A stretch of DNA of 64,000 nucleotides from Ophiura sarsii. Taxonomy: Eukaryota; Echinodermata; Ophiuroidea; Amphilepidida; Ophiuridae. The stretch is taken from positions 33,959,359 to 34,023,358 of the forward strand of contig CM069456.1 in assembly GCA_035610835.1 (NCBI GenBank), given 5' to 3'. Of this stretch, positions 16,791-59,881 are shown one piece after another (the first letter of the stretch is position 1; each line of letters opens with the position of its first letter). The translations under genes and the position numbers were made by a program. The notes below the pieces were generated by a model that saw nothing but the letters and a program-made list of their open reading frames with translations, was not told the origin of the DNA and did no database searches.

Positions 16791-17469
16791 TTCTACTATA
16801 CTTTTCTTACTATATCTTTATAATTTCCCTCTACAGTGCAACAGAGCATAAATTTCCAAATATTGAATTATAAATATAGTGCCTCCTGATTGTTGTACAA
16901 CAATGAACATTTCAATCCTAAGTATGTGTATCATATATAATTAAAACAGCTTTGTTTTAAAGTACTATTTCGTGTCCTTGTATGATTATCAGCATTGTTA
17001 CATTTCTTATTAAACCTGATTACGGATTGGCAAATACTTGATTATCCATACACGCTAATCCAACCAGCTACGGCCTACTTCCTTTCATGGCCTTGACTAT
17101 TTAAACATTTCTTTTTTTATTTAGACTTAGTGCAGGCCTTTAACACGATACCTGTTTGTACACCCATGCATGTCAGCACACGGTCAACTAAAATAACATA
17201 CACCATTATGACTGCACACTGGCGAATTGCATTTCAAATTTCATGTAGCGCGAATTTTAAACCACTAGTCCCTTAGCATGGACATGTCCTTGAATATTCC
17301 TTCCATTGTTTGCGTGCATGGCTGCACAAGTATTATTAGACTTTTGCCAAGTCTGTGTACAGTTGTATGAAATAGTGGCTACATGTGGTTTTTTCTCTTT
17401 TTAAATATACTAAATGTTTGGAGAACGATATTTTAAATACTAAAGGGATATTGAATTATCTGCTCAGAC

Positions 17470-26850: not shown

Positions 26851-28365
26851 ATGGAAACATCCAATAGGACATTACAAATATTTCTGTGGCTGCTGATTGG
26901 ATTTGCGGTTGTATCTTTTGTGAACAGTCAGGTGAATGGTAAGCAAATAATTACAAGTGACTAGTAACATCAAAAGGGGGCTCTTAGCCTTCAACATTGA
27001 AGTTAAGATTTTATTTCCATTTAAAAGTGTATTGTATAAACTTTAAAATGACACCTTCCTTGGTACATTTTGTCCATGAAGATTGTATGTGAAATATTAG
27101 GTCGGAATTCATTTTTTTAATTATTTGGGGTTTTTTCATGCTTTTGTTGCCTCACTGCATGCTGCCGACCAAAGCCCGCTTTTAATGTTATTGGTCACAT
27201 TGTATTGTCAATTAAAGGTATATTATGTGATATTTCCAGGGAACGCCCTCAACCTCGAAAAAAAAATAGAAAGCAGATTTTCTTGCAGATTTACATTTCT
27301 GATCATAAATCATGCATACATTCCAAGTTACAGGGCGATACGATTCTTAATTACTTCAAAATCATGGTTTTAGAGTGAAAATAAACTGTCGGAATCCCGA
27401 CACTTTATATTTTTCACTCTAAATTCACTCTAAAACCATGATTTTGAGGTAATTAGGAATCGTATCGCTCTGTAACTTGGAATGTATGTATGATTTATGA
27501 TCGGAAATGTAAATCTGCAAGAAAATCTACTTTCTAAAAATAATCATGAATAGAGGGCGCTCTCTGGAAAAGATCACATAATATGCCTTTAAGAATGTAT
27601 GTGATGAAGTGTTTTATATTAGGTACTCTGAGGTTTAACTAGATTCTTCCTGGAGAAATTATTATTCTAACCCTCAGAAGAGCCATTACCAATAGCTTTT
27701 TTTCTTTTCCTGGAAGCACCAATGTGTTGGTACAATGTAAATTATACGAGTCCACTCAGTTATAACATTGCACACCGGTAAATGGATTCTATATATAAGT
27801 GCAAAATTTTGTTACAAACAGTCACTTTTTACGCTCTTAAAATTCATAATGTTAAGTACAATATTTATATAGGATAGCCTAAAGGTTTTGAGAAGTAAAT
27901 CTCTGAAATTTGACAACTGGTGTTTGACAACTGGTGTTGCGCCCATATTCATCATAACAGATGAGAAGTCTTGACAGAATGCATTTAATTACATCCCGTA
28001 AAAACATTCAACATTAGCTAAAATATTGATTTTAAACTTTGGTATTGTGCAATTCTTCTAAATTGAGACTACTGAGATTAGGATAATATATATGAGGAGC
28101 GTAAACGATTCACAATAACAAGGACTCAAATGATTTACCGGAGCTTCTCGGTGTATAATCAAATAGGCCTCTACAGGCTTGCATCATATTGTTAGAATAG
28201 CAACGTCTGCGCCCAAAAATCATTACACTGCAAGTTTTATCATCTACCTTTCAGCACCGTGTTCAAACACTACTTTTGAATGTACAACGGATTTTTGTGT
28301 TGATTTCCATGACGTCTGTGACGGTGAGGAGGAGTGCCCTTACGGTAACGATGAGCGTTATTGTG
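26851..28365 (+). CDS. Exons 1-2: signal peptide and first LDLa module
   Basis: Exon 1 (26851-26938) starts at an ATG and encodes a short polar N-terminus followed by a hydrophobic core ([15 protein letters not shown]) ending near N-S-Q, a typical cleavable signal peptide of about 26 residues. It ends in phase 1. Exon 2 (28255-28365) encodes residues 30-66, an LDL-receptor class A module with six cysteines and the acidic calcium-binding end ([16 protein letters not shown]). The phase 1-1 exon is the standard shuffling unit for LDLa. The start is chosen because it is the ATG immediately before the hydrophobic core, and the frame joins the LDLa exon exactly. Upstream, 26500-26850 shows no convincing TATA box or other promoter signal. 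Confidence 0.85.
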
Positions 28366-31300
28366 GTAAGTTGACGCACTTTCAATAATAATAAAACGTA
28401 GATAAATCTTGAATACGACAATATTTCTACTGAAACTGATGATAGAGATAGCCCATGTAGTGAAATCAAATAGCTTTGACGGTGATAGGAAATCAAAGTT
28501 GTCACGGAATGCCAACATGGAATAAAAAGCACAAAATTAGTTGTTTATTTCGATTTCGTTCAAAAGGTACCATCTCCACTGTCCTAACCACATCAAAGAA
28601 AGTAGAAGTCACGGAGGGACCGTTATCCCGCCTCACTTGAAAAACTACATATCTATTATTTTACACAGGTGGGTGCCCACGTAATTGGCATTATTGGCGA
28701 GAGCATCTTTATTTCGTCGTAGTCCAACCAGATAAATTTGATTCTATCCGAGAGATTTGTGAAGAACTTGACGGGTCATTAGCAAGCATCGTGGATGTTG
28801 ATGAACTTGAATTTATAAAGTGTAAGTCACGACGAACTGAAATACGACGAGACGCATTTTCTCTTTGCATTTTTAAATAGTTTATATATTGCAATCTAAA
28901 TTATTATTGTTTCACACACAATAGCACACTGTTATTGTAGGGTAGCTTTAACAACAAATTCCTCTGTTTCAATATTGCAAACGAATCAGTTTTACAGTTG
29001 GGTGTTACCTGACCCCAAAATTGTCCCCAACATTTTCGAAAGGGTTAACGGCATTCTCTGGTCAATTTACCCGTTCACCAGTTGTTGGTTAAAGGCATAT
29101 TAAGTGATATTTTCCAAGTAGCGCCCTCTATCATTGATTTCTACTATGAAAGCAAATTTTCTTGCAGATTTGCATTTTTATCATAATTTATAAAGATCTT
29201 CTAAGTTACAGATCGATACGATTCCTAATTACTTCAAAATCATGGTTTGGAAATAGATTGTACCGAGCGGTACAATCTATTTTTTCTTCTTCAAATTTTA
29301 CTCTAAATTCACTCTAAAACTATAATTTTGAGGTTATTAGGAATCGTATCGCTCTGTAACTTGAAATATATATTTATGATTTATGATCAGAAAAGTAAAT
29401 CTGTAAGAAAATCTGCTTCCAATTTTTTTCCAGGATTAAAGGCGTCCCCTGAAAAAGATCACATAATATACCTTTAAGCTTAAACCCATTCCTTTTTCTT
29501 TCAATAAGTTAATAAGGATTGTAGATATAACATTAAAATTGAAATTATGTTTAACAAATCCAGGATGTTTACTCACATTTTAGACGGTTTCGTCAATCAG
29601 GTCGGCAGACTTCCTCAGTTATGACTTGATCCACTTTTCCCCGCGAGAGTTGTTTTTTCTCGTTTCCAGGATTCCCAGTTTGAAATATTTCCAAAATATT
29701 TCAAACATTTCAAAGGAAACAAAATGTACGTTTTTAAACTGAACGCTGTAGCATATTGCGTCCTTGATTGTTGATTAATAAGTCTGTCTATTAACGAATT
29801 GTGTTAGTGTTGAGCCCGGCTCGTGACATTGATGACGATCGAAGAATATGTCTACTTTCTCTTAAAACTTACACAACTCTCTCGTGAACATTTTTCAAAT
29901 TCTTACACATTTTACAGATCTTATTAGGACGGAGATCCACGAAGTTATCTGGATCGGCTTTAGTGACGCCAACGAAGAAGGGAAATACGAATGGCTAGAT
30001 GGATCGTCAGTAAGTTTCCATTGGCCCGCGATTTAACATTATATGGAAATTATCTTGAGGCTATAGAGATTCTTATTTTGTTATTCATTTTCAAAATCCT
30101 ACCTAATTGTTAAATGTATTTTCTTCTTTGAATATCCGGGTTTTTCTGGAACAATGATCCTGTGCTTGATCCTATGATTAGTATGCTTGACGCGTGTCTT
30201 TGGAAGACTTGTTGCTGTTGGGTTGTTGTAGGTGTTTGGGAAGGGATAATAATTTCTAGTTTGATGTCGTGTTATAACAAGCTTTTCCAGAAACCTTCAA
30301 ACCGGGGTGGGGGATTTGAACTTATACCCCTGGAGCTGAGGGATCAAACTATGTCAACATTGGTCTAACTGTACAATTCCACGCTTCAAAAACAGGACAG
30401 CTTCACGGAGAACCTTTGAGAGGGCATATATTAATAAAATAGAAAGGGTTAATTATCATCTTGTTTATGTTTAGCCCTCACCTGCTACTGACGCGGTAGC
30501 CCCACGCAAAAACCTCATTATCAAAATCTACAAACAGAATAATTTACGTAAATATGAGGTTCAGGAACACATTCCTCTATTTTCCTGTTATAATTCATAA
30601 ATAAAATGCCTGAAATAGTCAAATTACGGTTTAGTCTTGAAATACATCACAACTGGACAATTTGTACTCCTTTTCCTCGCATTACATTTGACGAGTAAAC
30701 TTCCCTTCACCTGCGGATCTTTTGTCATAATGTTTGTCCGTTGAACTACTGGGTTTTGTTTCATTGCACTTTTGGTTATGTATAATAATATGTTTTTAAC
30801 AAGGGATTGTTATCATAGGAATAATAACACGCGGACGTGCCGAGTGTTCGTGTATGTATGGTCGTATATATTCAACCTGAGTGAGCATACTAGTTTAATC
30901 AGTTCCAAATTGGCGAGAAATATTCGGTTTTTATCTCTCTGCCGGTGGACGTATATCCAAGCGTAAGCCAGAGAGTATGGCCACACGCACGCGGTGTCAC
31001 ACGAACGCGGTATTGGTCACACACACGCGGTATTAGCCCCCCCCCCCCCCTCCCCCAATTTGTTTAAACAATTAAATAGGTCAATCAAGGTCATAGAACA
31101 GTGTTTCTTGTTTTTCGTCGCCTAAGGGTATACGTATAACGCTCTATCATCTAAGTCGCTGTTCCTTCCCTTCTTTCCTTCCTACCCTTCCTACCAAAAA
31201 CACCCATGGTAACATGTTTTAATTATTTTGAAATGTTTTATTTTGGTTGCATATTTCCAGGTCAACTTTACAAATTGGAGATCAGGTCAACCGAACGATG

Positions 31301-34300
31301 TACCACCAGGTGAAGATTGCGCTGAAATGCACAAGGATGGGCTTTGGAATGATAATCGTTGTGATCTAGTGGCACATTCATACATATGTAAAAAGCCATT
31401 AACAGGTACCTAATTTATTTAAGTATACTGGAAGCGTTATCATTGAATTGTTATGCAGGCATTCGCATTTATTTGAATACTTCCTATCAAAATCATGATT
31501 TAATTAAGCTATAAACATTGTGCTTATAAAAGGGTCTCGATTCTCGACCTAATAATCTTAGTATTGGCCGATTGCATTAAAAAGGTATATTATGTGATCT
31601 TTCCAGGGGACACCCTCAATCCTCGAACATAATATGGAAGCAGATTTTCTTGCAGATTTACATTTATGATGATAAATCATAAATATATTCCAAGATACAG
31701 AGCGATATGATTCCTAATTACCTCAAAATCATGGTTTTAGATTGAATTAAGAGTAAACAATAAACTGCCAGTTAACCTGATAGTTTATTTTCACTCTAAA
31801 ACCATGATTTTGAAGTAATTAAGAATCGCATCGCCCTGTAACTTGGAATGTATGTACGATTTATGATCAAAAATGAAAATCTGCAAGAAAATCTGCTTCC
31901 AATTTGTTTTCGAGGATTGAGGGCGTCCCATGGAAAAGATCACATAATATACCTTTAAGTCCCTATTAATACTGGATAAATATTATAAGTAATAAGAAAA
32001 TAATCCTATCTTGCCTCCTAAACAGGCGAATATTTATACTCTTGGGCCCAAAAGTACAAGTTCCCCATCTCCGCCTTGAGTACATTTTATTTCATCACTA
32101 ATTTATATGTTACAGGTGGAATCGAAGAAATTCAACTTTTACTTAATGGTAAGTGCTACTGCCATTTAACAGTCCATGTTTATTCAAAGTGTAGCTTTTG
32201 GCATCTTTTAAAATTTATTTATATCCCATTCCATCATTCTAAATAAGTTATTGATCTGAGTATATGTTTTCTTCAATTATTAGTGTACATGTATACTTCG
32301 GGTATTCTTTTTCGTTCATATCTTTTATACCCTCTGGTGTATGGTTTCTGATAACCAATTGCAACTAACTATAGTTATGTTTGTAACGATGGGAATGAAC
32401 TCATACGATAGAACCGTGATAAAGATTAGATAGTCTGCAGGGCACATTTAAAGAAACGGCTGCAAATATCCAGGAGCTCCGAACACGCCGGTAAAAGAAC
32501 GTACGTTAAAAATTATCCAAACATTTGAATATGCAGACACAGAAAGGACAAGTAGGAGACGATGTTTGGAGTACAAAAAGAGTTTAATATCGATAGAGCG
32601 AGAAGCCACTCAAGTACATGTTAAACCGATAACCCCTCCGTCGTTGCTACACTAACCACTACACTAGAAATTCCACCCCGACATCCCTATCTAACACATA
32701 TGTTAACCCACTCTTTTACGACCCCTCCCCTGCGAACCCTACCCAGCATTTGGGCGGGAGGGAGCGGGAAGGCTAAAGCGAGATAAAGCATGGGCGCAGA
32801 CGGTCTAATAGAAATATACACCTGCCAACCTATCAATGACGTATCATTGATAGTACCCTTTGAGATAATTTGATATGTTCATTAAGATTGTCTCCTTTTC
32901 AGGTGAAACGGATAGCATTCAGGGTTCCATACAAGGTAAGAAACCATGCGTATTTGATAACTCATCGTTAGTATTACATAGTCACGTATTATAGTTTATA
33001 CGTCACTATATTCAAACAAGATTTTTGTCTTAGCTTTCTTTGTACACCAAATCCATTTTTGATTACCAATTAACACATTTCAGCTAATCAATGTCTGGCT
33101 TTGAGAATTTGTGAAAATATTATCTCAATAGAAACAATTACTTATACATAACAAAATCGCCCAATGTTTACCATACGTCACTATGTAATACCACCTATGA
33201 AATATCACCATGAAATGGCTCTGACGTATTGACAGAGTAAGTATATAGACGGACACGTATAGCATTCAGGGTTCCATACAAGGTAAGAAACCATGCATAT
33301 TTATATAATTCATTGTCGGTATTACATAATGAAGTATAGTGTATACGTCACTTTAATGAAACAAGATTTTCTTAGCTTTCTTTATACACCAAATCATTTT
33401 TTTGATTACCTAGGTATTTCAAATAATCAATTTCTGGCTTTGAGACTGTGTAACAATATTATCTAAATTAAAACAATTAGTTATACGTCACAAAATCGAC
33501 CACAATTCACCATACGTTACTATGTAGTATCACCTATGAAATGTCATCATGTAATGGCAATGATGTATTGACAGAGTTAATTTATACACGGCTGTTTCGT
33601 CTCCTGAAACTTATTTGTATTATAACATTAAGTAAATCAGGGGAAAATTAATTAGAATCAATAAAAAGCTATAATTGTTCGACGTGTGTTTTCAAGAAAT
33701 GCCGTGCGGCAATTTCGAAATTGGCTTTTTTGATTACATGACATTGAAGAATTGTCAAAGTCGTGCTTCGCAATTAAAGAGAGCCGATGAAGTGAGTCAG
33801 TTTTAATAATGAACATAAACGTTTTATAGTGGAGCAAACGTTAACACTAACAGTGATCAAACCCTTGTAGTTGTTATTATATTAGAATATTTCAAGATAT
33901 TATTTTGCCATAGGTGGGTGCAGTATGCCTCTACGATTAGAAACAACGAGCGAGCTTGCCGCCCACATATTATATGCGTCTAGCTTTTCAAGTGAGCAAC
34001 ATGCGCCACAATTTGGGCGCCTGTTTAGCAACAGTTACTGGAAACCCAGCCCCAATGACGACCATCCATGGATTCAAGTAACGCTTGGTCAACAAGTTGT
34101 ACTGTCTGGACTGGTCATCGATGGACAACTTAGTTTGAACATTGGATGGATTTGGGTGGACAAGTTCTATGTAACGTACAGCATTGATGGACTTCTGTGG
34201 ATGCCATATGTGTACTTCACTCAGAATGAGCTGGTAAGAAATAAAAGTGTGTGTGTGTTTCGATGCATATGGTACTGGCGTTATAACTGACACAGTAACG

Positions 34301-37300
34301 ACTCCTTCCTAACACATTACAGAAATTTAAAAATACACCGAGATACATCGAGATACAGAGATTGCCCTGATTCACTTGTACGATACCGGTAACATATGTT
34401 GAACAAAACGATACTCTTCCTGACGTTGATAGTTGACCAATAAAAACCAATATGAGAACAAGTCTGGCACAACTTCCCTACAATATCCCTGTTCTAATGT
34501 AATCATTGATATTAGTACGATTTCAAAATGTATCAAATATGTCGTGCCATTATTTTTTCAGTGTGGGCACATACCATGTTACCAAGATCATTTGAATGGC
34601 CATGATATCACAGTGTTTACTAGCCTACATGCTTGTCGACGAGTATTAGTGTTTTATTATCAATTCAAAGCAAGAAATATTCGACTTCACCCTATCGTCG
34701 AGTCGAAAACAACTGCAGAACGTTCTAAAGTTGGATGCAAGATTGATGTGCTGGGATGTTCCGATAATGGTATGTGTCTAAAATTGTTTATAGCTACCCT
34801 ATTCTAGCACAAAATGATATACTGGTTATGCTAGCAGAACCCGTGTGTTGCTCATTACCGATATTTTCGGTGATATCGGTACTGATATTACCGATATCTT
34901 GCAGAGTAGCCATCCCAAATGCGAAAAGTTGACCGATTTTGCACAATGACCCAATGCTTCTATTTATCTAGCAAAGGGCAGGCAAATTACAAACGTGTGG
35001 AACTAGAAACAAGCCTGAGGCGCTGCAGTCTTGCCACATGACTTGGCACACGTGGTGACTTTCCGCCAGATTTGGGCTAGTTTTAAAACTAAAATCTGCT
35101 CTTTGGATAATATAATGTGAATTTTTTTCTCGAAATTTTAACTTTTGTTTTTATAAAACATGATAATTATAGCACTAGGCTTCTAGTTACACCCAGACTA
35201 AAGAGCCTTGAGCTATGCTTAGGACAGCGGTAGATCTAGGTAAAGATCCCAACCCTGGCGCAGCCGGCCGAGCGAAGCGAGGTAGAACGGGGCATGGGCG
35301 GATCCACTACTACGTATATATGTTCACATGGTTTATATTCGGGGTATTGGGTAGGCACGATACCAGTGCTAGACAGCGGTCGAAATGGTAGCACGCACGC
35401 TGTCAAGACACAGTTGGTGTAAAATAAATCAGATAAATGGTGTAAGAGGGGATGATTTATTACCCTGGATAAGTCATCAAAGACGTGGTCAAGAAAGTTG
35501 GATTTTATACAGGGAACGGAACCGTAATGTGACGCTTGTGTACAGAGATATGAAAACCGCATATGTCTGGCCACTTATGAACTCATTAAACCATAGTTCA
35601 ACATTCATGGGTAGTTACAAAGCACCCGCCAAGTTATTTGTATCATGTGTGCTTCACAGATTGTGACTATTCACTCGGGGTGGCAACAGGTGGAGTAACC
35701 GATGTGATGATGACGTCATCTAGTGATCTAACTCCAGCTCACCAGGCACAGACTGCGCGCCTAAGACTTATCCCTGAAGTAGGTGCCCAAGGTACTGGCT
35801 GGATACCCGCTATGAAGGATTCGAACCCGTGGATACGTATTCAGATGAATGATTTCTACGACATTCGCGCCGTTGTAACTCAGGGTTGTGGAGATCAACA
35901 GGCATGGGTTATGGAGTACTGTCTTGCATTTGTTGATAGCTACAATACCGTAAATTATTACGGTGGTTTGACACTCTCAAATTGTCAGGTAATAAATGTT
36001 TAAGGCAATGCTGTAAAGTCAATATTTGGAGTTTCTTTTGCATTACTCATTGAAAAACAGAATTATATTGTGTCCTTTCGCAAAAATCAATCGTAGCCAA
36101 GTACATCTCCTACACTCACAAAACTAACAATTGCATTCTGAGCATTAAGATGATTGGTGCTTTTTTCGGTACAGAGGATATCATTCCGTTGGTCATGTTG
36201 ATAACAATTATAAATAATAATAACAATAACACTAACACTCACACTAATAAAAATAATAATAAATAAATAAATGAATGAAACACAGTCCTTATATTTCGCT
36301 TTCTCCTCAGGCAAATATCGCTTGGGTTGACCGGGCAATTAAGACTGGTATCTTGCCCAAGGACACAAACAAGTTGGCCACGGCGGGATAGAATTCACAA
36401 CCGCGTGATTATGAGTCCCGCCGCGCTATTCCGCTGGACCACACGTGCTCAATTAGTTGCTTTGAAAAGAAACGAGTTGCTCTGAAGTTGGGTGACCCAT
36501 TGTACAACATTAATATTTCTGGCTGTTAATCTGAGACCAGGGCGTACATGTCGGAAAATGACCTTATTTATGGTTATCAGCTAGTTGTCATGAGCAATTG
36601 AACGTACAAGGAATTGCTTGTGCGTCATCGTAACATTTTGACAATTACTACCTACCTAATCCACGTCATAGACCTACTTTGATTATAAATATTCGGGCAC
36701 GAAGAGTTAAATTAGTTTCATGTTTACCTACATGTATGTCAGGCACTTACATGGTCTAGGTTACCATACTGAACAATATTATTATTCCCCAAATGCAGAC
36801 ACAATCGGGAAATGACGACAACGCCAGTTTGACGCGAAATGCTTTGAATCCTCCAATTGAATCCAAAGTAATTGTATTTCATCCGATAGCATGGCAGAAT
36901 CAACCTTGCCTAAGAATTGAGCTAATAGGCTGCGCATCGGGTAATTATATAGGGCAGAATAACTAACAAATAGCAATTACTTAACTAGCAAAATGACGAC
37001 AAGTAAAATGTCTAGCTTAAGTAATTGCTGAAAATGTATTGTATAATGTTTTACTTAACTAACAAACTTTTGCTTGAATGGATTAGTAGATAGTTGGTGT
37101 ATATCAATAGATTGTCAATCATTTACTAGTAATTAATTTAACTTTTACATTTGCTGGCACGGGGGCTGGTAATAATTGATTTCTGATAAATGTGTTAATG
37201 CCAGAGATTCCAACTTTCTAATGATTGAACTGAAACAATGTTCGGTATCACGATGCATGTCTGTGGTCTGATATTCCCTACAAGCTTCAATACTGTGTGG

Positions 37301-55300: not shown

Positions 55301-58300
55301 GATTTCTAAGAGACACCTGTCACTCAACCTACTTTCATGAAAATTATAACAACTTCTTCTCCCAAATAAAATAAAAAAGAGTGAAAAAACATTGAAATAA
55401 TGTCTAATCCTAATTTTCAAAAAGGGGGGGGGGGAGGGGACGAAAAGCTGTCTTTCTTTACCCCGATTAAGGCTTGTTTTTTTGTTAAGTGCAAGATTAC
55501 GCGAATGATTAACTTCCAATTAAACATTTGAAAATTCCAAGTAAAAGCTCAACTTTATTTTATAATCTGTAATAATTGATTCTCATCCGAAGTGAATGCT
55601 ATTTGGTTACGTTTTTTCATATCTTCCTTAAGCTTATTTCAAATAATTAAATATTTAACCTCATGCGATGTGTTCATCAAATGTGTGAAAGCACCACATT
55701 TTGGTTTTGAACACCTCAGATTGAATTTTGATTAAGAATCGAGATAAGACTACTTCTAAGATGCACTTTCACAACTTGCCAACATATGTAGTTCAATAAT
55801 TTTCTGGAGTGGGGTAGTTATAAAAACAGTAGTTTAATATTCAGTTCTGAAATGAGTAGTAGTATAACCGCATTAGTATCATATTTGGTTGATTGACCAT
55901 TATCATGTTACTTTTATTCACTCAAACAGGTGTCTATCCAACAACCATATAAATGCTATTGGAAATGCTTCATTCTTTGCCTTAACAAAACTAAAATATT
56001 TGTAAGTATGATAAATACATCCTATATTAAGAATCTGAATGTAAAAATTGCACCAAAAAGTAGAATATTGCTAGTAACACGTTATAAAGAGGATAGTTTG
56101 TCTTGATACTTGTGGCCCTAAGGAATTAAATTATATTAGGTGTTACTGTTTTACCTCATTTGTATACTGCCTCTATGATCGTGTTTTAATGATACATAAC
56201 TATTTTGAAATAATTTGCAGGGATTTATCTGGAAACCCATTGACATATCTTGATTCGGGCGCTTTCATAAATCTGCAGCAACTTACCTTTCTGTAAGCAC
56301 ATTGATATAACTGTATAGATAGATATTTCACGTGAAATGCATATCCCCACACCCTGGAAGACATGACCTTAATCTTCCACGCACGTTAGATTTCTAGAGT
56401 CATTCATGCAGGTAACATCATTTGAAATCCAAACACCCTGTGGGGAAGATTAAGGTTATGTCTTTCATAGATGGTGTTATGATTTCAAATAAAATAGCCT
56501 ACAGTATTACTCATACGTTGCTATTAAGATAAACTTTACGTTAGATATTGACGGAAATTACAATATTGTTTTAAAAAAAAATCTTTCGTGTGCGTTAATG
56601 TTTTATTTTAAGCGTAAATGTTAAAATGTTCATACAAATCGTGTTAAAACATAATTTATTCGTCAAGATGTTTGCCCGAAACACATGTATTTATTGGATA
56701 CTTCAAGTAATGCTAGTTTCGACACAATTTAATTTTAATTCTAACTTTCTGTCGTCAAACACTCGCCCAATACATCTAGAATGACATGGTAGAAACATAG
56801 GAATATGAATATTACAGAATCTCAAGTTAACACATGCTGTTTATTCCGTCAGAATGCGATAATATTATTATGGACATTGAAATTAAAATTGGATTGAGGT
56901 CATACATCTCATATTACTACCATGTGATTCTATACTGTAAATGTATTGCCTGGAATACTAGAGTAAAACTTTTATTCTAAAGTTAATCGTAACGTTTCCG
57001 AATTTTTAAAACGGATTATTTGCTCGTTTACATTGTCGTATAATTGTTTTGTTGTAATTTCCCCCCACATAATGATCGCCTATATCAGGAGTTTTCGTGA
57101 TAGTGCACTGGAAGGAGGTGTAAAGGAAACATTTGAACATCTGATTTCTCTAATGACATTGTAAGTTTATTCAATTGAAAGTTCATTTAAAAGAAACGAA
57201 CATCGACAAAAAGACCTAAAGAATGTTTTTAAAAGATTTAAAAATATAAATATAACCATTAGTAACGGCAAAATAAAAATGTGGAAACTGAGATTTATTT
57301 TCTATTTTCGCAACTTATTCATCCTTCAATTTCAGACATTCGGATAACTACTTATTTTGTTGTTTGGTACAACGCCTAGAAACACTGACGGAATGCTTAC
57401 CAGAACCTGACCAGTTTTCCTCCTGTGCTGACCTGATACGTATTCCACTCCTTCGGATATTCATGTGGATTCTTGGTGTAAGCGCCCTTCTAGGCAATGC
57501 GTTTGTGATTATAAAGAGAATCATAACCGATTCTAGGCAATCTCCCAAGAAGCGGATAGGTCGTGTTCAAAATATTATGGTTTCTCATCTTGCAGTAGCC
57601 GATAGCTTGATGGGGGTGTACATGATAATCATTGCATCAGTCGACGTTCTTTACAGAGACCGATATGCTTTCTTTGCTGAACAATGGCAAACAAGTATTG
57701 TGTGTAAATTTGCGGGACTTTTGTCGGTTCTATCAAGTGAATCATCTGTTCTTTTTATGACGGTTATCAGTGTTGACCGGTGCGTCGGATGTCTTTTCCC
57801 ATTTAGTTCATTAAAGTTGGATACAAAATCAGCAAAGATGGCAGCAGCTGCTATATGGTTTATCACTTTGGTTATCAGCCTCATTCCATTGATGATACCT
57901 AGTTATTTTGGCAATGCTTTTTATGGAAGATCCAGTGTCTGCCTGGCACTACCTTTGACTACAGATAGACCTGAAGGATGGCAATATTCTATAGCTGTAT
58001 TCACATTTCTGAATCTACTAGCTTTCATTGTAATGATTGCGTGTTATACCGCCATATACTTTACTGCAAAATCATCATCGGTGCAATCCGGCCGTGATCG
58101 GAGTTCAGTCCGAGCAAAAGAAATCGAACTTGCGCTTAGAATGGCATTCCTAGTATTCTCTGACATGTGCTGTTGGATGCCAATCATTATAATGGGCATT
58201 GTATCTCTAACTAGCAATGTGGAAATCCCTGCTGAAAGCTATGCATGGATAGCGGTATTCGTCTTGCCATTGAATTCGTCTCTAAATCCATATCTTTATA

Positions 58301-59881
58301 CGATACTGACACGTGAAATGTCTAAGAAGGACGCGGCTAAATTGCGAAGGAAGGAGGCAATGATGTCGATTAGTGAAACTCAGTTTTCTAACGCTGGTTA
58401 CTATCCCGATAATCGCCAAGCTGTAAATGATCGTGAGTAATTATTTTCAATTTATGTAAAATAATTAAAACTTTTGTGAAGGCTTATTATAAACTATACG
58501 CGGAAGGAATATATTTCGTTGTACAATACTCACATCTGCTCATACTTGTATATGTGTGTTTGATTAACAGCTATCGAAATCAGACAAGCAATAGGATCTT
58601 CCGACAAAGATTGGTTAGCACATCATATCTTACTGCGTGGTTATTTCAATAATGAAATGAACGACATATATACACCTTTGTCAGCTTACAAGTTTAGTTC
58701 CGAAGAGCTAAAGGCTATTCAGCGTGATCTAGAAACTGCGCTCAGATTTATCCATGGTCAATGTCTAACGTGCAGTGGTGAATTCAAGGAAGATCAGGTT
58801 ATGATTAGTAAGGTATGTAACAAAGCCATCTGAAAAACATTAAATTCAAAAGGTTTGATACGTTATTTAAATTAAATGTGTTTCTCTTGTATAGCAACCA
58901 AAATGATTGATATCTGTTACCAATATCACTGCTGGATATAATATTATTTGAGAAAGGAAAAAAATATGAGAAGGAATATAACAATGAACTTGAAGTAACG
59001 TTGATATCAAACTTAAAAGGAACTTAAATATAAACGGAACCGTACTATTGATCTTAAATTATATTGATACAATAACCATGATTTTACATTGACACTAAAC
59101 GCAGTAGAATCACGCGAGAGGATAAGTGAAATGTAACAGAGATAATGAAATATTTAAGGAGAGTAATGGCGTTTTAATAATCTCGTATAATTAAACCCAC
59201 TTTGCTACAGGAAGTTGTAAATCCCCTTTTGTAACGTCATAAGTCGTCAGTTGGCCAATCCCGTGCCAGCTCTGGCAAGCCCGCGAATTTGACTTTGTTC
59301 ACTAGTGCATTATGGGTGCAATTTGCTGCTCCGCAATGCATTTTCTGTCGGCCTGGGAAATTCCCTCCCACCCACCCTCCCCTTTTTCTTTTGGGGTGTT
59401 TTTTGGATTTCGATTTTCAGATATATTTGATAGCCATCAAAGATTTAATGTCTTTGAGATTTACAGAAAGATCTATATCAGGAGTCAATTTGGGATTTTC
59501 CCGTTACGCAGGCCGAAACCGAGGGTAATGGAACAATCCTAATTGGCCAAAATTACAGTCGTGTATGTGTTATGTTATATATATATATAAAGATATTACT
59601 GAACTATTTTCAAGCCATGTAATAAGAAAGAATAAAATCTCATGTCACCATATAAGAAAAGAATTAGATTATATTTAATATTTGTTTTAAATTTAATAAC
59701 CATTATAATTTTTTTAAATTTCTTTATTTGATTTTTTTTCTTCATTTAGATGGGTGACGAGACAAGAGGTTATCTTGTAATTTCAGATCTACATGTAATT
59801 GGTATGGCGGATATGGATGACGTGCGTGCATTAACTCAGCTCTACCTTAATCAGATGCTGGAGCGGATTGAAACGCAATAA
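26851..59881 (+). CDS. Mosaic LRR-GPCR (LDLa/CTLD/discoidin/CUB/LRR/7TM), GRL101-like, 32 exons
   Basis: Predicted plasma-membrane receptor of 1,810 aa. Exons: 26851-26938, 28255-28365, 28669-28821, 29918-30009, 31261-31405, 32116-32148, 32903-32935, 33914-34233, 34562-34769, 35660-35988, 36799-36940, 37722-38144, 40120-40338, 40933-41017, 45019-45176, 45885-45932, 47795-47902, 48451-48597, 49667-49783, 50255-50371, 50840-50989, 51518-51634, 51761-51877, 52000-52108, 54530-54634, 55182-55253, 55930-56001, 56221-56292, 57089-57160, 57336-58432, 58571-58812, 59750-59881. Every junction is AG/GT, phases chain throughout, and the total is divisible by three, which is strong internal support. Domain order: signal peptide, LDLa, CTLD, two F5/8C, CUB, CTLD, seven LDLa-like, LRRNT, LRRs, Cys hinge, 7TM, cytoplasmic tail. 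LDLa plus LRR plus 7TM is the layout of Lymnaea GRL101 and relaxin receptors; ligand and G-protein coupling are unknown. The 5' UTR and promoter were not identified. Confidence 0.88.
27212..27592. mobile_element. TTAA-flanked foldback MITE, copy 2
   Basis: Same family as the element at 6289, in intron 1 of the mosaic receptor, with TTAA at both ends and inverted arms starting AGGTATATTATGTGAT. It differs from copy 1 at only a few bases, so both moved recently. Confidence 0.8.
28669..31405 (+). CDS. Exons 3-5: first C-type lectin domain
   Basis: Residues 67-196 form a complete C-type lectin-like domain split over exons 28669-28821, 29918-30009 and 31261-31405. It opens with the usual GCPRNWHYW segment. 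A WIG-type core ([13 protein letters not shown]) follows, then a W-x-S-G-Q-P-N-D stretch at 154-161, E-D-C at 166-168, W-N-D at 177-179 and the last cysteine near 193. In the family, the EPN/QPD tripeptide together with WND holds Ca2+ and sugar. Here the tripeptide is QPN (158-160), a hybrid of the mannose-type and galactose-type forms. Calcium-dependent carbohydrate binding is therefore plausible, but the specificity cannot be read off. TTAA-flanked foldback repeats lie in the two introns that split the domain's neighbourhood. Confidence 0.85.
29089..29477. mobile_element. TTAA-flanked foldback MITE, copy 3
   Basis: Same family, in intron 3. The arms are more diverged and the centre is a different hairpin (AGATTGTACCGAGCGGTACA), shared with copy 5, defining a second subfamily. 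Confidence 0.75.
31577..31958. mobile_element. TTAA-flanked foldback MITE, copy 4
   Basis: Same family, in intron 5, TTAA at both ends. The central hairpin is related to copies 1 and 2 but diverged (AAACTGCCAGTTAACCTGA). Confidence 0.75.
32116..32935 (+). CDS. Exons 6-7: two 33-bp linker micro-exons
   Basis: Two phase 1-1 micro-exons of 33 bp each (32116-32148 and 32903-32935) encode 11 residues apiece ([11 protein letters not shown] and [11 protein letters not shown]). They form a polar linker between the lectin domain and the first discoidin domain. Splice sites are TACAG/GTAAGT and TTCAG/GTAAG. They are too short for domain evidence and are supported by phase, splice signals and acceptable length only. 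Either could be skipped without changing frame. A tandem duplicate of the second micro-exon lies at about 33,250-33,282 and was not included because it would be 34 nt and break the frame. Confidence 0.55.
32903..33597 (+). repeat. Tandem duplication (347 bp) including micro-exon 7
   Basis: The stretch from 32903 is repeated from about 33250 (offset 347), including AGCATTCAGGGTTCCATACA and the donor GTAAGAAACCATGC. The second unit's acceptor side is altered. Confidence 0.7.
33914..34769 (+). CDS. Exons 8-9: first F5/8 type C (discoidin) domain
   Basis: Exons 33914-34233 and 34562-34769 encode residues 219-394, a full F5/8C (coagulation factor 5/8 C-terminal, discoidin) domain. Visible hallmarks are the opening Cys near 221 (GCSMPL), the [14 protein letters not shown] segment, the [11 protein letters not shown] strand, an [12 protein letters not shown] run and the closing [12 protein letters not shown] ... 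IDVLGC. Such domains bind membrane phospholipids, collagen or glycans through variable loops. The intron inside the domain is phase 0, and the domain is bounded by phase 1 introns. Confidence 0.88.
35660..36940 (+). CDS. Exons 10-11: second F5/8 type C (discoidin) domain
   Basis: Exons 35660-35988 and 36799-36940 encode residues 395-551. The first half begins D-C-D-Y-S-L-G-V and includes [17 protein letters not shown] and the strand [11 protein letters not shown]. The second half has the usual G-N-D-D-N ... [14 protein letters not shown] and closes with CLRIELIGC. The NPPI-x-(A/S)-(R/K)-x-I-x-x-x-P pattern and the closing xELxGC are the strongest F5/8C signatures. The domain intron is phase 0 at a position equivalent to that in the first discoidin domain, consistent with internal tandem duplication of a two-exon domain unit. 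Confidence 0.87.
36290..36455 (-). repeat. tRNA-derived SINE, minus strand
   Basis: The minus strand begins with an A-box-like TGGTCCAGCGGAATAGCGC, a GACTCATAATC anticodon-type segment (CAT) and a degraded B box (GGTTGTGAATTC). A body follows with GTGTCCTTGGGCAAGATACC, a motif common in tRNA-derived SINE tails. Lies in intron 10. Confidence 0.6.
37722..38144 (+). CDS. Exon 12: CUB domain with an RGD tripeptide
   Basis: A single 423-bp phase 1-1 exon encodes residues 552-692. The segment [14 protein letters not shown] near the start, C-x-W-H-I near the middle and F-x-x-F-D-V-P-S ... [11 protein letters not shown] are standard CUB features. The closing G-L-G-F-Y-A-K-Y strand completes the fold. 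A classic CUB has two disulphides, and the cysteines here fit that. Behind the fold, the exon's end carries R-G-D at 682-684 in a polar linker. RGD is the integrin-binding tripeptide in many extracellular proteins, but whether it is used here is unknown. Confidence 0.85.
38389..38700 (+). repeat. tRNA-Lys-derived SINE
   Basis: The 5' part (TGGCGCAGTGGGTAGAGCGC, then GACTCTTAA and GGTTCGAGTCT) looks like tRNA-Lys(CTT) with A and B boxes. It is followed by an unrelated body containing GAGTAAGGCACTTTACCGC and CCAGGTGTATTTTGAATGGG. Typical SINE2 structure, plus strand, in intron 12 of the mosaic receptor. Confidence 0.7.
38879..39082. mobile_element. TTAA-flanked MITE (CACTTTCCACGCG family), copy 1
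   Basis: A 204-bp element bounded by TTAA with inverted ends CACTTTCCACGCGG and CCGCGTGGGAAGTG. An internal GTCTGCAGACGACA palindrome follows the left end. In intron 12. Confidence 0.7.
39575..39735 (+). mobile_element. Small TIR element, truncated copy
   Basis: Holds the left two-thirds of the family found at 47222 and 49811 (GATGACAGGAATGTTTATAA through GCACGGGTCCTAAACAAAA). The right part is missing. In intron 12. Confidence 0.6.
40120..45176 (+). CDS. Exons 13-15: second C-type lectin domain
   Basis: Exons 40120-40338, 40933-41017 and 45019-45176 encode residues 693-846. The domain starts L-C-P-R-N-W-K, has [14 protein letters not shown] and A-H-L-V-S-I, then [13 protein letters not shown], and ends W-Y-D-V-P-C ... 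H-Q-F-I-C. The sugar-site tripeptide is Q-P-D at 802-804, the galactose-type motif, unlike the QPN of the first lectin domain. The usual WND is WYD (825-827), so one calcium ligand is changed and calcium binding may be weakened. The intron between exons 14 and 15 is 4 kb and stuffed with nested foldback repeats. Confidence 0.85.
41296..42160. mobile_element. Foldback element with internal tandem units
   Basis: Outer ends are inverted (AAGTAAATCCCCCGCCCCCC at left; GGGGGAGGGCTTACTT at right). The interior has two diverged direct units (about 41,851-41,995 and 41,998-42,131) and an inverted one (about 41,330-41,480) built around GGGAAATGTGACTGTTTT. It is interrupted by the 137-bp MITE. In intron 14. 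Confidence 0.6.
41498..41634. mobile_element. hAT-type MITE with perfect 8-bp target duplication
   Basis: A 137-bp element with ends GGTTTATCCTG and CAGGATACACC, flanked by AAAAAGTG at 41490-41497 and 41635-41642. Related copy at 19359-19498. It is nested in a larger foldback (41296-42160). Confidence 0.75.
43084..43706. mobile_element. Foldback element with tRNA-like arm ends
   Basis: Arms of about 150 bp (43084-43236 and 43556-43706) are inverted copies. Each carries a tRNA-like tip (A box TTGGTGTAGTGGTTAACA; B box GGTTCGAATCC on the left arm, mutated on the right). At the centre lies a second inverted repeat (about 43,355-43,435: GAACGGTTCACCAG...GCTGAAATAAA). In intron 14. Confidence 0.65.
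43884..44315 (+). repeat. Diverged tandem duplication, period about 265 bp
   Basis: Units from 43,884 and 44,149 share GAACATAACATG, CATTGTGTCATTAATTGCTA, TAGTCGCACA and GCGTTAGTAA in order. In intron 14. Confidence 0.6.
44741..44841. repeat. Short foldback
   Basis: Inverted arms around CATAACATTGATCTTCGGCC and GGCCGAAGATCGATGTTATG enclose GGGCCC-rich sequence. In intron 14, close to exon 15. Confidence 0.65.
45885..45932 (+). CDS. Exon 16: short acidic linker exon
   Basis: A 48-bp phase 1-1 exon between the second lectin domain and the LDLa array encodes 16 residues ([16 protein letters not shown]). It has a good TTTTTAG acceptor and a GTAAAA donor. No domain is visible; support rests on phase compatibility and splice signals, so it could be optional. 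Confidence 0.5.
46386..46829. repeat. Long foldback, about 200-bp arms
   Basis: The left arm (AAAGTATAGTTTGCACTACTT...) and the right arm (...AAGTGCAAACTATACTTT) are inverted. Inner matches include AAGGTCATTGACCTTTACAT and its complement. In intron 16. Confidence 0.65.
46983..47146. repeat. Compact palindromic element
   Basis: Arms of at least 32 bp are exact complements (ATTTCACTGTCACACAATCG at left, mirrored at right), with a second near-perfect pair around GAGAACCGACCAATAC. In intron 16. Confidence 0.65.
47222..47488 (-). mobile_element. Small TIR element (TATAGATGGGGTGAC family), full copy
   Basis: A 267-bp element with inverted ends TATAGATGGGGTGAC and GTCACCTCATCTATA. Copies lie in opposite orientation at 49811-50064 and, truncated, at about 39575-39735. 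The long open frame in it is incidental. Confidence 0.65.
47795..51877 (+). CDS. Exons 17-23: array of seven LDLa-type modules
   Basis: Seven consecutive phase 1-1 exons (47795-47902, 48451-48597, 49667-49783, 50255-50371, 50840-50989, 51518-51634, 51761-51877; residues 863-1153) each encode one LDL-receptor class A-like module. Modules 2, 6 and 7 keep the calcium cage best ([48 protein letters not shown]). Module 3 has [11 protein letters not shown]. Module 4 has an insertion before its acidic end. Modules 1 and 5 keep cysteines but have lost the acidic calcium motif. In GRL101 and relaxin receptors, LDLa modules sit N-terminal to the LRRs and are needed for signalling in the relaxin receptors. 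Four of the seven exons are exactly 117 bp, a sign of tandem exon duplication. Confidence 0.83.
49285..49440. repeat. CCAGTATCG inverted-motif cluster, copy 2
   Basis: Counterpart of 25255-25430 in opposite orientation, ending CTAGTACAGTCC. In intron 18. Confidence 0.6.
49811..50064 (+). mobile_element. Small TIR element (TATAGATGGGGTGAC family), second copy
   Basis: Starts CTAGATGAGGTGACAGC and ends GTCACCCCATCTATA, with the shared core GGCGCGAGTTTTAAAAGCAC. It begins only about 27 bp after the donor of exon 19. Confidence 0.65.
52000..57160 (+). CDS. Exons 24-29: LRR N-cap and leucine-rich repeats
   Basis: Exon 24 (52000-52108) encodes an LRR N-terminal cap with C-P-Q-G-C-I-C-D-G and a further Cys, and switches intron phase from 1 to 2. 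Exon 25 (54530-54634, 105 bp) is an atypical repeat. Exons 26-29 (55182-55253, 55930-56001, 56221-56292, 57089-57160) are each exactly 72 bp, phase 2-2, one 24-residue LRR per exon. They carry L-x-L-S-G/N-N cores ([36 protein letters not shown]). One LRR per 72-bp phase-2 exon is the known structure of LGR genes such as glycoprotein-hormone and relaxin receptors. The LRR block (roughly six repeats) is shorter than in most LGRs. Confidence 0.85.
52205..52425. mobile_element. TTAA-type MITE (CACTTTCCACGCG family), copy 2
   Basis: Same family as 38879-39082: left end ACACTTTCCACGCGGG with GTCTGCAGACGACA, right end CCGCGTGGAAAGTGT. The TTAA is clear on the left only. In intron 24. Confidence 0.65.
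52430..54529 (+). other. Intron 24 of the mosaic receptor, mostly plain
   Basis: After the CACTTTCCACGCG element, the rest (52,430-54,529) is AT-rich without exons in the required phase. A stretch near 53,950-54,080 (ending TACACCAAGGATAAACC) may be a half copy of the hAT-type MITE. Confidence 0.5.
54746..55131. mobile_element. TTAA-flanked foldback MITE, copy 5
   Basis: Same family, in intron 25, with TTAA on the left and a degraded right end (TTCAA). It carries the GGTACAATCTATTTT-type central hairpin of copy 3. Its right end is only about 50 bp from the acceptor of exon 26. Confidence 0.75.
57336..58432 (+). CDS. Exon 30: Cys-rich hinge and seven-transmembrane domain
   Basis: Encodes residues 1321-1686. 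It starts by completing the last LRR, then a hinge with C-C, C and F-S-S-C-A-D-L (the YxFCC ... FSSCxDL hinge of LGRs). A class A rhodopsin-like 7TM bundle follows at about 1360-1645. Visible signatures: TM1 L-G-N near 1372-1375; TM2 [14 protein letters not shown], close to the LGR NLAxADxLMGxYL; TM3 end D-R-C in place of DRY; TM7 N-P-Y-L-Y at 1638-1642 matching NPxxY. The whole 7TM domain is in one exon, as in LGRs. The donor (C|GTGAGT at 58433) was chosen over reading on to the TAA at 58438-58440, because splicing yields an open tail of 124 further residues. Confidence 0.9.
58571..59881 (+). CDS. Exons 31-32: cytoplasmic tail, degenerate kinase-like C-lobe
   Basis: Exons 58571-58812 and 59750-59881 encode residues 1687-1810, stop TAA at 59879-59881. 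The tail is far longer than in relaxin receptors. By eye it follows the order of a protein-kinase C-lobe: E-E-L-x-x-I-x-x-D-L-x-x-A-L-x-F-I-H (1731-1748, like helix E); then [15 protein letters not shown] where kinases have i-v-H-R-D-l-K-p-x-N-i-l-l (HRD read as CSG); then L-V-I-S-D-L (1776-1781, DFG read as DLH); then [15 protein letters not shown], like helix F. Catalytic Asp and Lys are missing and the N-lobe is absent, so any function would be scaffolding. The assignment is inference from pattern only; the exons themselves are well supported by phase and open frame. Confidence 0.75.

What the first reader, a model, noticed from the sequence alone, without database searches (positions are those of the whole stretch)
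26851..59881. A GPCR whose ectodomain combines LDLa, two C-type lectin, two discoidin and CUB modules with an LGR core
Seen: 32 exons with fully consistent phases give one 1,810-residue frame with all these domains in order. Known: GRL101 and relaxin-type LGRs carry LDLa plus LRR plus 7TM; lectin, discoidin and CUB modules are typical of glycan, lipid and matrix recognition. Inference: this receptor couples pattern- or matrix-recognition modules directly to a class A GPCR, which would make it a candidate sensor of glycans, microbes or self-matrix. The front half is built entirely of phase 1-1 exons (exon shuffling), and the LRR/7TM half uses the LGR phase 2 pattern; the two meet at the LRR N-cap exon (52000-52108).
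Basis: partly seen in the sequence, partly recalled or inferred. Interest (0 to 1): 0.88.

Follow-up and report, generated by a model that had tools for sequence, protein, structure and literature searches.

The report
Lectin-armed LGR receptor with kinase-like tail
A gene, likely from a brittle star, is predicted to encode one 1,810-residue receptor that puts lectin, discoidin and CUB modules in front of a relaxin-receptor-like GPCR and ends in a tail that likely descends from a protein kinase; relatives in four animal phyla share this plan, so it would be an old animal sensor of sugars or matrix.

Summary
Pfam finds LDLa, two C-type lectin, two discoidin, CUB, LRR and 7tm_1 above cut-off. 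Exons 3-30 run collinear with an Amphiura protein.
It is not unique. Of 124 family proteins (window included), 45 carry discoidin, CUB and the proximal lectin domain with the 7TM, in echinoderms, a hemichordate, molluscs and chelicerates. Snail GRL101-like receptors with a lectin domain are published (PMC12297450). The host genome holds at least 25 family 7TM exons.
A profile of 21 family tails matches kinases in the PDB (best VRK3, 6.6e-11; all 60 listed of 798); reversed, it finds nothing. The window's tail alone matches nothing, but fits a profile made without it, recurs in three paralogs, and exon 31 is under purifying selection. It looks like a dead kinase C-lobe. A 2025 survey found GPCR-kinase fusions in animals only in sponges. 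Ligand and signalling are untested.

The parts
26851..26938 (+). Exon 1: start codon, predicted signal peptide
   Evidence: ATG and hydrophobic stretch, donor GTAAGC, phase 1; no homologue covers it
28255..28365 (+). Exon 2: LDLa module 1 (aa 32-66)
   Evidence: six-cysteine LDLa pattern, phase 1-1
28669..31405 (+). Exons 3-5 (28669-28821, 29918-30009, 31261-31405): C-type lectin domain 1, aa 67-196, QPN and WND motif
   Evidence: Pfam Lectin_C; 47-62% identical to P0001; does not fit the CTLD1 profile of the other relatives
32116..32148 (+). Exon 6: 11-residue linker
   Evidence: 9 of 11 identical to P0001
32903..32935 (+). Exon 7: 11-residue linker
   Evidence: 8 of 11 identical to P0001
33914..34769 (+). 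Exons 8-9 (33914-34233, 34562-34769): discoidin domain 1, aa 221-391
   Evidence: Pfam F5_F8_type_C 4.3e-10
35660..36940 (+). Exons 10-11 (35660-35988, 36799-36940): discoidin domain 2, aa 395-551
   Evidence: Pfam F5_F8_type_C 3.7e-14
37722..38144 (+). Exon 12: CUB domain, aa 570-678
   Evidence: Pfam CUB 5e-14; 58% identical to P0001
40120..45176 (+). Exons 13-15 (40120-40338, 40933-41017, 45019-45176): C-type lectin domain 2, aa 696-843, QPD and WYD motif
   Evidence: Pfam Lectin_C; directly after CUB in 58 of 58 family proteins that have both
45885..45932 (+). Exon 16: 16-residue acidic spacer
   Evidence: phase and splice sites; 3 of 16 identical to P0001
47795..51877 (+). Exons 17-23 (47795-47902, 48451-48597, 49667-49783, 50255-50371, 50840-50989, 51518-51634, 51761-51877): seven LDLa modules, three degenerate by eye
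   Evidence: phase 1-1 each; 39-77% identical to P0001; Pfam LDLa
52000..52108 (+). Exon 24: LRR N-cap
   Evidence: phase 1-2; 53% identical to P0001
54530..57160 (+). Exons 25-29 (54530-54634, 55182-55253, 55930-56001, 56221-56292, 57089-57160): LRRs, all phase 2-2
   Evidence: Pfam LRR_8 1.4e-13; phases
57336..58432 (+). Exon 30: LRR C-cap and hinge plus seven-transmembrane domain (aa 1340-1646), DRC, CWMP, NPYLY motifs
   Evidence: Pfam 7tm_1 1.6e-27; RXFP1 9.4e-52; motifs; dN/dS 0.07 with a paralog
58571..58812 (+). Exon 31: cytoplasmic tail, kinase C-lobe-like part (helix E, degenerate catalytic loop, strand 7 by my reading)
   Evidence: leave-out profile 30.5 bits; present in three paralogs; dN/dS 0.24
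59750..59881 (+). Exon 32: end of tail, stop codon
   Evidence: clean acceptor, stop at 59881; 47.5% identical in one paralog

Best explanation
The gene is predicted to encode one GRL101-type receptor in which lectin, discoidin, CUB and LDLa modules stand outside the cell in front of a relaxin-receptor-like LRR/7TM core, with a cytoplasmic tail that likely descends from the C-lobe of a protein kinase, and it would work by binding a sugar- or matrix-borne ligand and passing this on to a G protein. Shown: the single open frame, the modules and their order, collinearity with relatives, a QPD + WxD motif in the lectin domain next to the CUB that 30 of 68 family copies share, intact CWxP and NPxxY motifs in the 7TM, family-level similarity of the tail to kinases, and the absence of HRD in it. 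Inferred: Ca2+-dependent binding of galactose-type glycans by lectin domain 2; transmission through the LDLa string and LRR hinge to the 7TM, as LDLa does in RXFP1 (recalled); coupling to Gs because RXFP1 is the closest solved 7TM; and a scaffold or docking role for the dead kinase-like tail.
For: Gene model: 32 exons, 1,810 aa, 31/31 introns GT-AG. Domains above Pfam cut-offs. Family: 45 of 124 (window included) with discoidin + CUB + lectin 2 + 7TM, order CUB - lectin 2 - 7TM in 58 of 58. Lectin 2 motif [EQ]P[DN] followed by WxD in 44 of 68 domain copies, QPD in 30. 7TM best PDB hit RXFP1 9.4e-52; Foldseek of a relative's model ranks FSHR, TSHR, LHCGR, LGR4 and RXFP1 first. Tail: 21-tail profile to VRK3 6.6e-11, all 60 listed of 798 are kinases, titin's kinase domain counted; 8-tail profile not chosen for kinase likeness to MK3 1e-4; reversed profile 0 hits; hhalign of the tails against hemichordate GRL101-like tails, probability 58%, E 9.7e-5, against 0.7%, 0.081 for the reversed control; order helix D - helix E - strand 7 - strand 8 - helix F in two AlphaFold models of relatives; window tail against 2,000 shuffles of itself, 30.5 versus 13.7 bits. 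Tail present in 50 of 74 family proteins with lectin, CUB or discoidin modules but 7 of 50 without. Paralogs: tail exon after the 7TM exon in all 3 loci looked at; dN/dS 0.07 for the 7TM, 0.24 for exon 31.
Against: No transcript, binding or signalling data. The window's own tail by itself matches no Pfam family convincingly and no PDB chain; kinase descent rests on the family profile, whose 20 other rows I chose by eye. hhalign gives only 58% probability. Kinases do not appear among the 50 listed structure hits (of 1,949) of the full-length model, where a 100-residue tail has little weight. Exon 32 dN/dS is 0.48 with a bootstrap upper bound of 1.05. One of the three paralogs has a stop in the 7TM stretch compared, and its tail exon was found by profile only. 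24 of 68 lectin 2 copies lack the sugar motif as I wrote it, so sugar binding cannot be universal. GRL101 has been proposed as an IGF receptor on quite different grounds (PMC8286064).
Confidence: 0.6

Rival explanations
1. It is the echinoderm GRL101, a second receptor for an IGF-like peptide. The LRRs bind the insulin core and the LDLa string binds a basic tail; the lectin, discoidin and CUB modules only position the receptor.
For: Proposed for ambulacrarian GRL101 in PMC8286064 (passages); the LRR/7TM core is closest to RXFP1.
Against: The passages seen posit the ligand and show no activation by it. The front modules are kept in four phyla in a fixed order. At least 25 family 7TM exons in this genome (whether each has the front modules was not checked) are many for one IGF; that paper found one GRL101 per ambulacrarian species studied.
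Confidence: 0.25
2. It is a pattern-recognition receptor of innate immunity that detects microbes through the lectin and CUB modules.
For: Lectin-bearing GRL101-like genes lie in a schistosome-resistance region of a snail (PMC12297450, passages); family 7TM exons are many and clustered in this genome.
Against: The snail association is with a region, and its top variants lie in a neighbouring gene that is not GRL101. Strong constraint on the 7TM says nothing about ligands. No expression data here; a starfish GRL101 is reported in sensory tentacles instead (PMC6267866, passages).
Confidence: 0.25
3. The tail is an ordinary helical GPCR tail whose likeness to kinases is chance or convergence.
For: The window tail alone matches no kinase; only 10 of 21 tails match Pfam Pkinase even at E up to 1 (best 3.5e-4; PK_Tyr_Ser-Thr also 10, best 2.9e-4).
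Against: The listed profile hits are kinases only and the reversed control is empty; same order of secondary structure in two models; three hemichordate GRL101-like proteins match Pkinase at 2.3e-6, 5.2e-5 and 2.1e-5, though below Pfam's cut-off score.
Confidence: 0.15
4. Two neighbouring genes (a secreted lectin/CUB protein and a plain LGR) were joined by the reader.
For: No transcript is available; both halves have known stand-alone kinds.
Against: P0001 spans the junction at exon 23/24 with no break; 45 of 124 family proteins have discoidin, CUB and lectin 2 together with the 7TM; all junctions are in phase. Gene predictions in other species could share the same error, but not across four phyla.
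Confidence: 0.03

Closest known systems
GRL101 / type C2 LGR (Lymnaea stagnalis and others)
   Same: Several LDLa modules, LRRs and a class A LGR 7TM; the family search returns proteins named GRL101 from molluscs, arthropods, echinoderms and hemichordates.
   Different: The classic form has no lectin, discoidin or CUB modules, and only 7 of 50 family proteins of that shape have the kinase-like tail.
Lectin-bearing GRL101-like receptors of Biomphalaria sudanica (SudRes2)
   Same: C-type lectin + LDL + LRR + 7TM in one protein (PMC12297450, passages).
   Different: The passages seen do not mention discoidin or CUB modules (0 occurrences of either word in the main text) or a kinase-like tail.
Uncharacterised echinoderm, hemichordate, mollusc and spider proteins in NCBI/UniRef (P0002, P0003, P0006, P0053, P0058 and others)
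   Same: Discoidin - CUB - lectin 2 - LDLa - LRR - 7TM on one chain.
   Different: Usually two or three CUBs; in the ambulacrarian ones another, degenerate lectin domain and often an EGF lie between discoidin and CUB. Only the window and P0001, of 45, have a lectin domain in front of the discoidins.
Relaxin receptors RXFP1/2 (type C1 LGR)
   Same: Closest solved 7TM and hinge; LDLa in front of LRRs (recalled).
   Different: One LDLa, no lectin, discoidin or CUB (recalled).
GPCR-TKL/K and GPCR-TK fusions of choanoflagellates, sponges, oomycetes and amoebozoans
   Same: 7TM followed by a kinase-related domain (PMC12716839, section 26).
   Different: Those are described as kinase or tyrosine-kinase-like domains; here only a C-lobe-like remnant without HRD remains, on a class A LGR.
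Amphioxus Adhesion GPCRs with LDLa, CUB, C-type lectin and discoidin modules
   Same: Same kinds of modules on 7TM receptors (PMC2246102, passages).
   Different: Adhesion class, not the LGR class.

Membership tests
GRL101 / type C2 LGR | Class A (7tm_1) seven-transmembrane domain of LGR type | tested here: met
   7tm_1 1.6e-27; RXFP1, TSHR, FSHR, LHCGR, a C. elegans LGR and LGR4 are the best PDB matches
GRL101 / type C2 LGR | LRR ectodomain with N-cap next to the 7TM | tested here: met
   LRR_8 1.4e-13, N-cap exon 24
GRL101 / type C2 LGR | Several LDLa modules | tested here: met
   5 Pfam stretches; 8 modules by my reading of the exons
GRL101 / type C2 LGR | Groups with GRL101 apart from RXFP and glycoprotein-hormone receptors in a tree | tested here: inconclusive
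   Tree of 123 family 7TMs holds proteins named GRL101 but no outgroup LGR and is midpoint-rooted
Relaxin receptor (type C1 LGR) | A single LDLa module at the N-terminus before the LRRs | tested here: not met
   At least five LDLa modules and five other modules in front of the LRRs
Adhesion GPCR | GPS/GAIN domain and class B2 7TM | tested here: not met
   No GPS or 7tm_2 match at E up to 0.1; 7tm_1 instead
Galactose-type C-type lectin | QPD motif with a following WxD in the Ca2+/sugar site (recalled) | tested here: met
   QPD...WYD in lectin 2; QPD + WxD in 30 of 68 family copies
Galactose-type C-type lectin | Ca2+-dependent galactose binding | not testable with these tools
   needs protein
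Protein kinase (C-lobe descent of the tail) | Sequence similarity to kinases | tested here: met
   Met for the family profile only: VRK3 6.6e-11, reversed 0 hits; window tail alone: none
Active protein kinase / GPCR-TKL | N-lobe, HRD and DFG motifs | tested here: not met
   In the module and the 40 residues after it, 0 of 57 tails have H[RK]D and 1 has D[FL]G; median 58 residues between 7TM and module leaves no room for an N-lobe

The most novel reading that the evidence does not exclude
Bilaterian animals have kept a family of GPCRs fused to a pseudokinase: glycan- and matrix-binding LGRs (discoidin-CUB-lectin-LDLa-LRR-7TM) whose cytoplasmic tail is a dead kinase C-lobe, longer in some hemichordates, trimmed to helices D-F elsewhere. 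The family has at least 25 7TM exons in this brittle-star genome alone and has gone unnoticed because many members sit in databases as 'uncharacterized protein'.
Probability: 0.6. Interest if true: 0.82.

Novelty: new variant of a known kind. Interest (0 to 1): 0.63.

Why it matters
If right, animals hold a large, old receptor class that joins sugar and matrix recognition directly to a hormone-type GPCR and to a built-in pseudokinase. That offers a concrete ligand test (galactose-type glycans on lectin domain 2), a direct way to ask whether GRL101 is a peptide receptor or a glycan sensor, and a bilaterian case of 7TM-kinase fusion, which a 2025 survey found in animals only in sponges (PMC12716839, section 26).

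Tried and rejected
My 29-exon model was replaced after P0001 showed three missing linker exons. A putative exon near 48141-48248 (LRR-N-cap-like, weak donor) was left out: I saw no counterpart in P0001. The second copy of exon 7 inside the 339-bp duplication (near 33250-33284) has no acceptor that keeps the frame, by eye. I tested whether the window's first lectin domain is the family's usual CTLD1: it scores 26 bits with that profile (28 sequences), no better than lectin 2 does (25), and 59 with the lectin 2 profile (53 sequences), so it is a different or duplicated domain. Species: genome size and relatives suggested Amphiura filiformis (1.57 Gb, PMC11310086, passages), but P0001 matches the window's genome at no more than 76%, so it is likely another ophiuroid; Ophiura sarsii is also reported at 1.57 Gb (start of abstract in a search listing), which decides nothing. 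Foldseek of the full-length model shows no kinase among 50 of 1,949 rows, no evidence either way for a short tail. I did not fold the tail alone, since pieces of database proteins are not clearly allowed there. The second model was not searched. Nine of the 18 proteins (P0010-P0018: LDL-receptor-like, LRR, slit and the like) were dropped as no relatives; of the 156 hits only the 120 listed were seen. Claims that the tail or architecture is not in print rest on searches of an open-licence library only.

Full report
Gene. The window lies in a 1.57-Gb animal genome (G000, contig C16:33959359-34023358). I rebuilt the gene from stop-to-stop frames, splice sites and phase. Comparing it with the Amphiura filiformis protein P0001 showed missing linkers, and three small exons and a later CUB donor filled them. 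Exons 3 to 30 align in order with P0001 at 38-82% identity, apart from the 16-residue spacer exon 16 (3 of 16). P0019, another Amphiura protein, covers exons 13-32, weakly at exon 16 (1 of 15), exon 31 (22 of 77) and exon 32 (7 of 43). P0001 has no counterpart of exons 1-2 and ends inside the 7TM.

Domains. Pfam, run on the 1,762-residue version, finds LDLa, two Lectin_C, two F5_F8_type_C, CUB, LRR_8 and 7tm_1, all above the curated cut-offs, and nothing at E up to 0.1 in the last 124 residues. In 1,810 numbering: lectin 1 67-196, discoidin 221-391 and 395-551, CUB 570-678, lectin 2 696-843, 7TM 1340-1646, tail module 1724-1780. LDLa modules stand, by my reading, at exon 2 and exons 17-23. The 7TM has DRC, CWMP and NPYLY. 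Its best PDB match by sequence is relaxin receptor 1 (9.4e-52), then TSHR, FSHR and LHCGR.

Phases. Every module boundary in the front half is a phase-1 intron, but the two lectin and two discoidin domains are split inside by phase 0 or 2 introns, so the front is not built only of 1-1 exons. Exon 24 goes from phase 1 to 2 and the LRR exons are 2-2 (where it is numbered 21).

Family. The whole-protein search gave 18 proteins, 9 of them relatives; the search with residues 860-1762 gave 156, of which 120 are listed; a search with the tail of the hemichordate protein P0098 gave 3, one of them new. I worked with 124 proteins: these relatives as listed, and the window. With profiles built from the window's own domains, 65 have a C-type lectin domain, 67 CUB, 46 discoidin, 58 CUB plus lectin 2, and 45 discoidin plus CUB plus lectin 2, all with the 7TM. 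In 58 of 58 the CUB is directly followed by lectin 2, before the 7TM. By the names given (classes recalled) the 45, window and P0001 included, are echinoderms of all five classes, one hemichordate protein, molluscs and chelicerates; the annelid Capitella has CUB and lectin 2. The fusion is therefore a family trait. In a 7TM tree of 123 sequences (P0001 too short) the window groups with P0019 and sea-cucumber proteins (supports 0.97 and 0.70); the tree has no outgroup. The usual ambulacrarian order is discoidin - degenerate lectin - CUB - lectin 2. Of the 45, only the window and P0001 have a lectin domain in front of the discoidins; it scores 26 bits with the usual CTLD1 profile and 59 with the lectin 2 profile.

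Sugar site. Lectin 2 of the window reads QPD...WYD. In the family 44 of 68 lectin 2 copies have [EQ]P[DN] followed by WxD, 30 of them QPD; 24 do not fit the pattern (that script counted P0001 twice, corrected here). QPD as a galactose-type and EPN as a mannose-type motif is recalled knowledge. Lectin 1 has QPN and WND.

Tail. The last two exons match no kinase alone. A profile of eight tails, not chosen for kinase likeness (P0002-P0008 and the window, starts trimmed by eye; P0001 lacks the tail and P0009's is 46 residues), hits MAP kinase-activated kinase 3 at 1e-4, and 60 of 60 listed rows of 198 are kinases. A profile of 21 tails, 20 chosen by eye plus the window, hits VRK3 at 6.6e-11 and 798 sequences at E up to 10, of which the 60 listed are all kinases, titin's kinase domain counted. 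The same rows reversed hit nothing at E up to 10. Singly, 10 of 21 tails match each of two Pfam kinase families at E up to 1, best 2.9e-4, and the window's matches neither. A profile without the window scores the window tail at 30.5 bits; the best of 2,000 shuffles of it reaches 13.7. That profile finds 57 of 124 proteins, 20 of which built it, always after the 7TM: 50 of 74 with lectin, CUB or discoidin modules, 7 of 50 without. None of the 57 has H[RK]D in the module or the 40 residues after it, one has D[FL]G, and the median gap from 7TM to module is 58 residues, too short for an N-lobe. Three hemichordate GRL101-like proteins have longer tails with Pkinase matches of 2.3e-6, 5.2e-5 and 2.1e-5, below Pfam's cut-off score; their profile hits kinases only weakly (MEK1, 0.0046), and it aligns with the 21-tail profile at probability 58%, E 9.7e-5 (reversed control 0.7%, 0.081). 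AlphaFold models of the relatives P0027 (mean pLDDT 77.5) and P0019 (75.0) both give, after the 7TM, a short strand, helix D, helix E, a loop, strands 7 and 8 and helix F, at block pLDDT of 54-84 in the first and 40-85 in the second; labelling these as kinase elements is my reading.

Same genome. P0001 finds 35 matches in G000: 25 separate 7TM exons, the window's own included (59-76% identical), on contigs C4, C5, C8, C10, C12 and C16; 7 CUB exons, the window's included, some clustered with 7TM exons as on C5 at 45.3-45.5 Mb; and 3 discoidin stretches on C10 (counts are lower bounds, and I did not model the other genes). In three paralogs read further, a tail exon lies after the 7TM exon (two by direct alignment, one by profile only). 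Against the C10 paralog dN/dS is 0.07 for the 7TM (356 codons, dS 1.16), 0.24 for exon 31 (79 codons, bootstrap upper bound 0.50) and 0.48 for exon 32 (40 codons, upper bound 1.05). Against the 5.27-Mb paralog on C16 exon 31 gives 0.24 (upper bound 0.60) at a near-saturated dS of 2.4. For both C16 paralogs synonymous sites are saturated in the 7TM, and the 34.18-Mb one has one stop in the stretch compared. No further copy lies within 50 kb on either side.

Literature. GRL101 is described with LDLa, LRR and 7TM and proposed as an IGF receptor (PMC8286064, passages). Snail GRL101-like genes with a C-type lectin domain lie in a schistosome-resistance region (PMC12297450, passages). A starfish GRL101 is expressed in sensory tentacles (PMC6267866, passages). 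Cnidarian receptors labelled GRL101 have multiple LDLa (PMC4079206, passages). Amphioxus Adhesion GPCRs carry LDLa, CUB, lectin and discoidin modules (PMC2246102, passages). A 2025 survey reports 7TM-kinase fusions from oomycetes, amoebozoans, choanoflagellates and sponges, and not from other metazoan lineages (PMC12716839, section 26). In the open-licence library I found no paper on the discoidin-CUB-lectin LGR plan or on the kinase-like tail; subscription journals are mostly not covered.

Verdict. The reading needs correction: this is, likely, a brittle-star member of an old, large and little-described receptor family, with its own module order. The new part is the tail. Ligand, G protein and the role of the tail are inferences.

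Noticed in passing
window 61830-64000 (+), continuing into L014:2-922: A second, apparently intronless LRR-7TM gene starts 2 kb downstream: 13 LRR_8 stretches and no LDLa in the window part, 41% identical to P0125 and related to Amphiura P0127; its 7TM lies in the flank.
   Followed up: partly
window 63004-63380 (+): 144-bp tandem repeat inside that gene, equal to two LRRs per unit, a sign of recent LRR gain.
   Followed up: no
window about 48650-48738 (-): Inverted, truncated copy of LDLa exon 22 inside the intron after exon 18: 22 of 27 residues identical. Possibly exon shuffling in the act.
   Followed up: partly
window 32908-33591 (+): 339-bp direct duplication that copies small exon 7 but, by eye, no usable acceptor.
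   Followed up: partly
window 17444-18358 (+): Open frame with a reverse transcriptase match (RVT_1, 4.5e-18), probably a retroelement.
   Followed up: no
window 54740-55150: Inverted repeat of a roughly 150-bp element; similar translated stretches recur in other introns, MITE-like by eye.
   Followed up: no
window 38107-38144 (+): The CUB-lectin linker reads NRRGDSHS, an RGD triplet absent from the P0001 linker; probably chance.
   Followed up: no
relatives P0057-P0059, P0064, P0066, P0069, P0071-P0073, P0081, P0111: These spider, mite and bivalve relatives also list Pfam PF16977 (ApeC, name recalled), another possible recognition module, on the same LGR. P0111 also lists PF00067 (P450, recalled), perhaps a fused annotation.
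   Followed up: no
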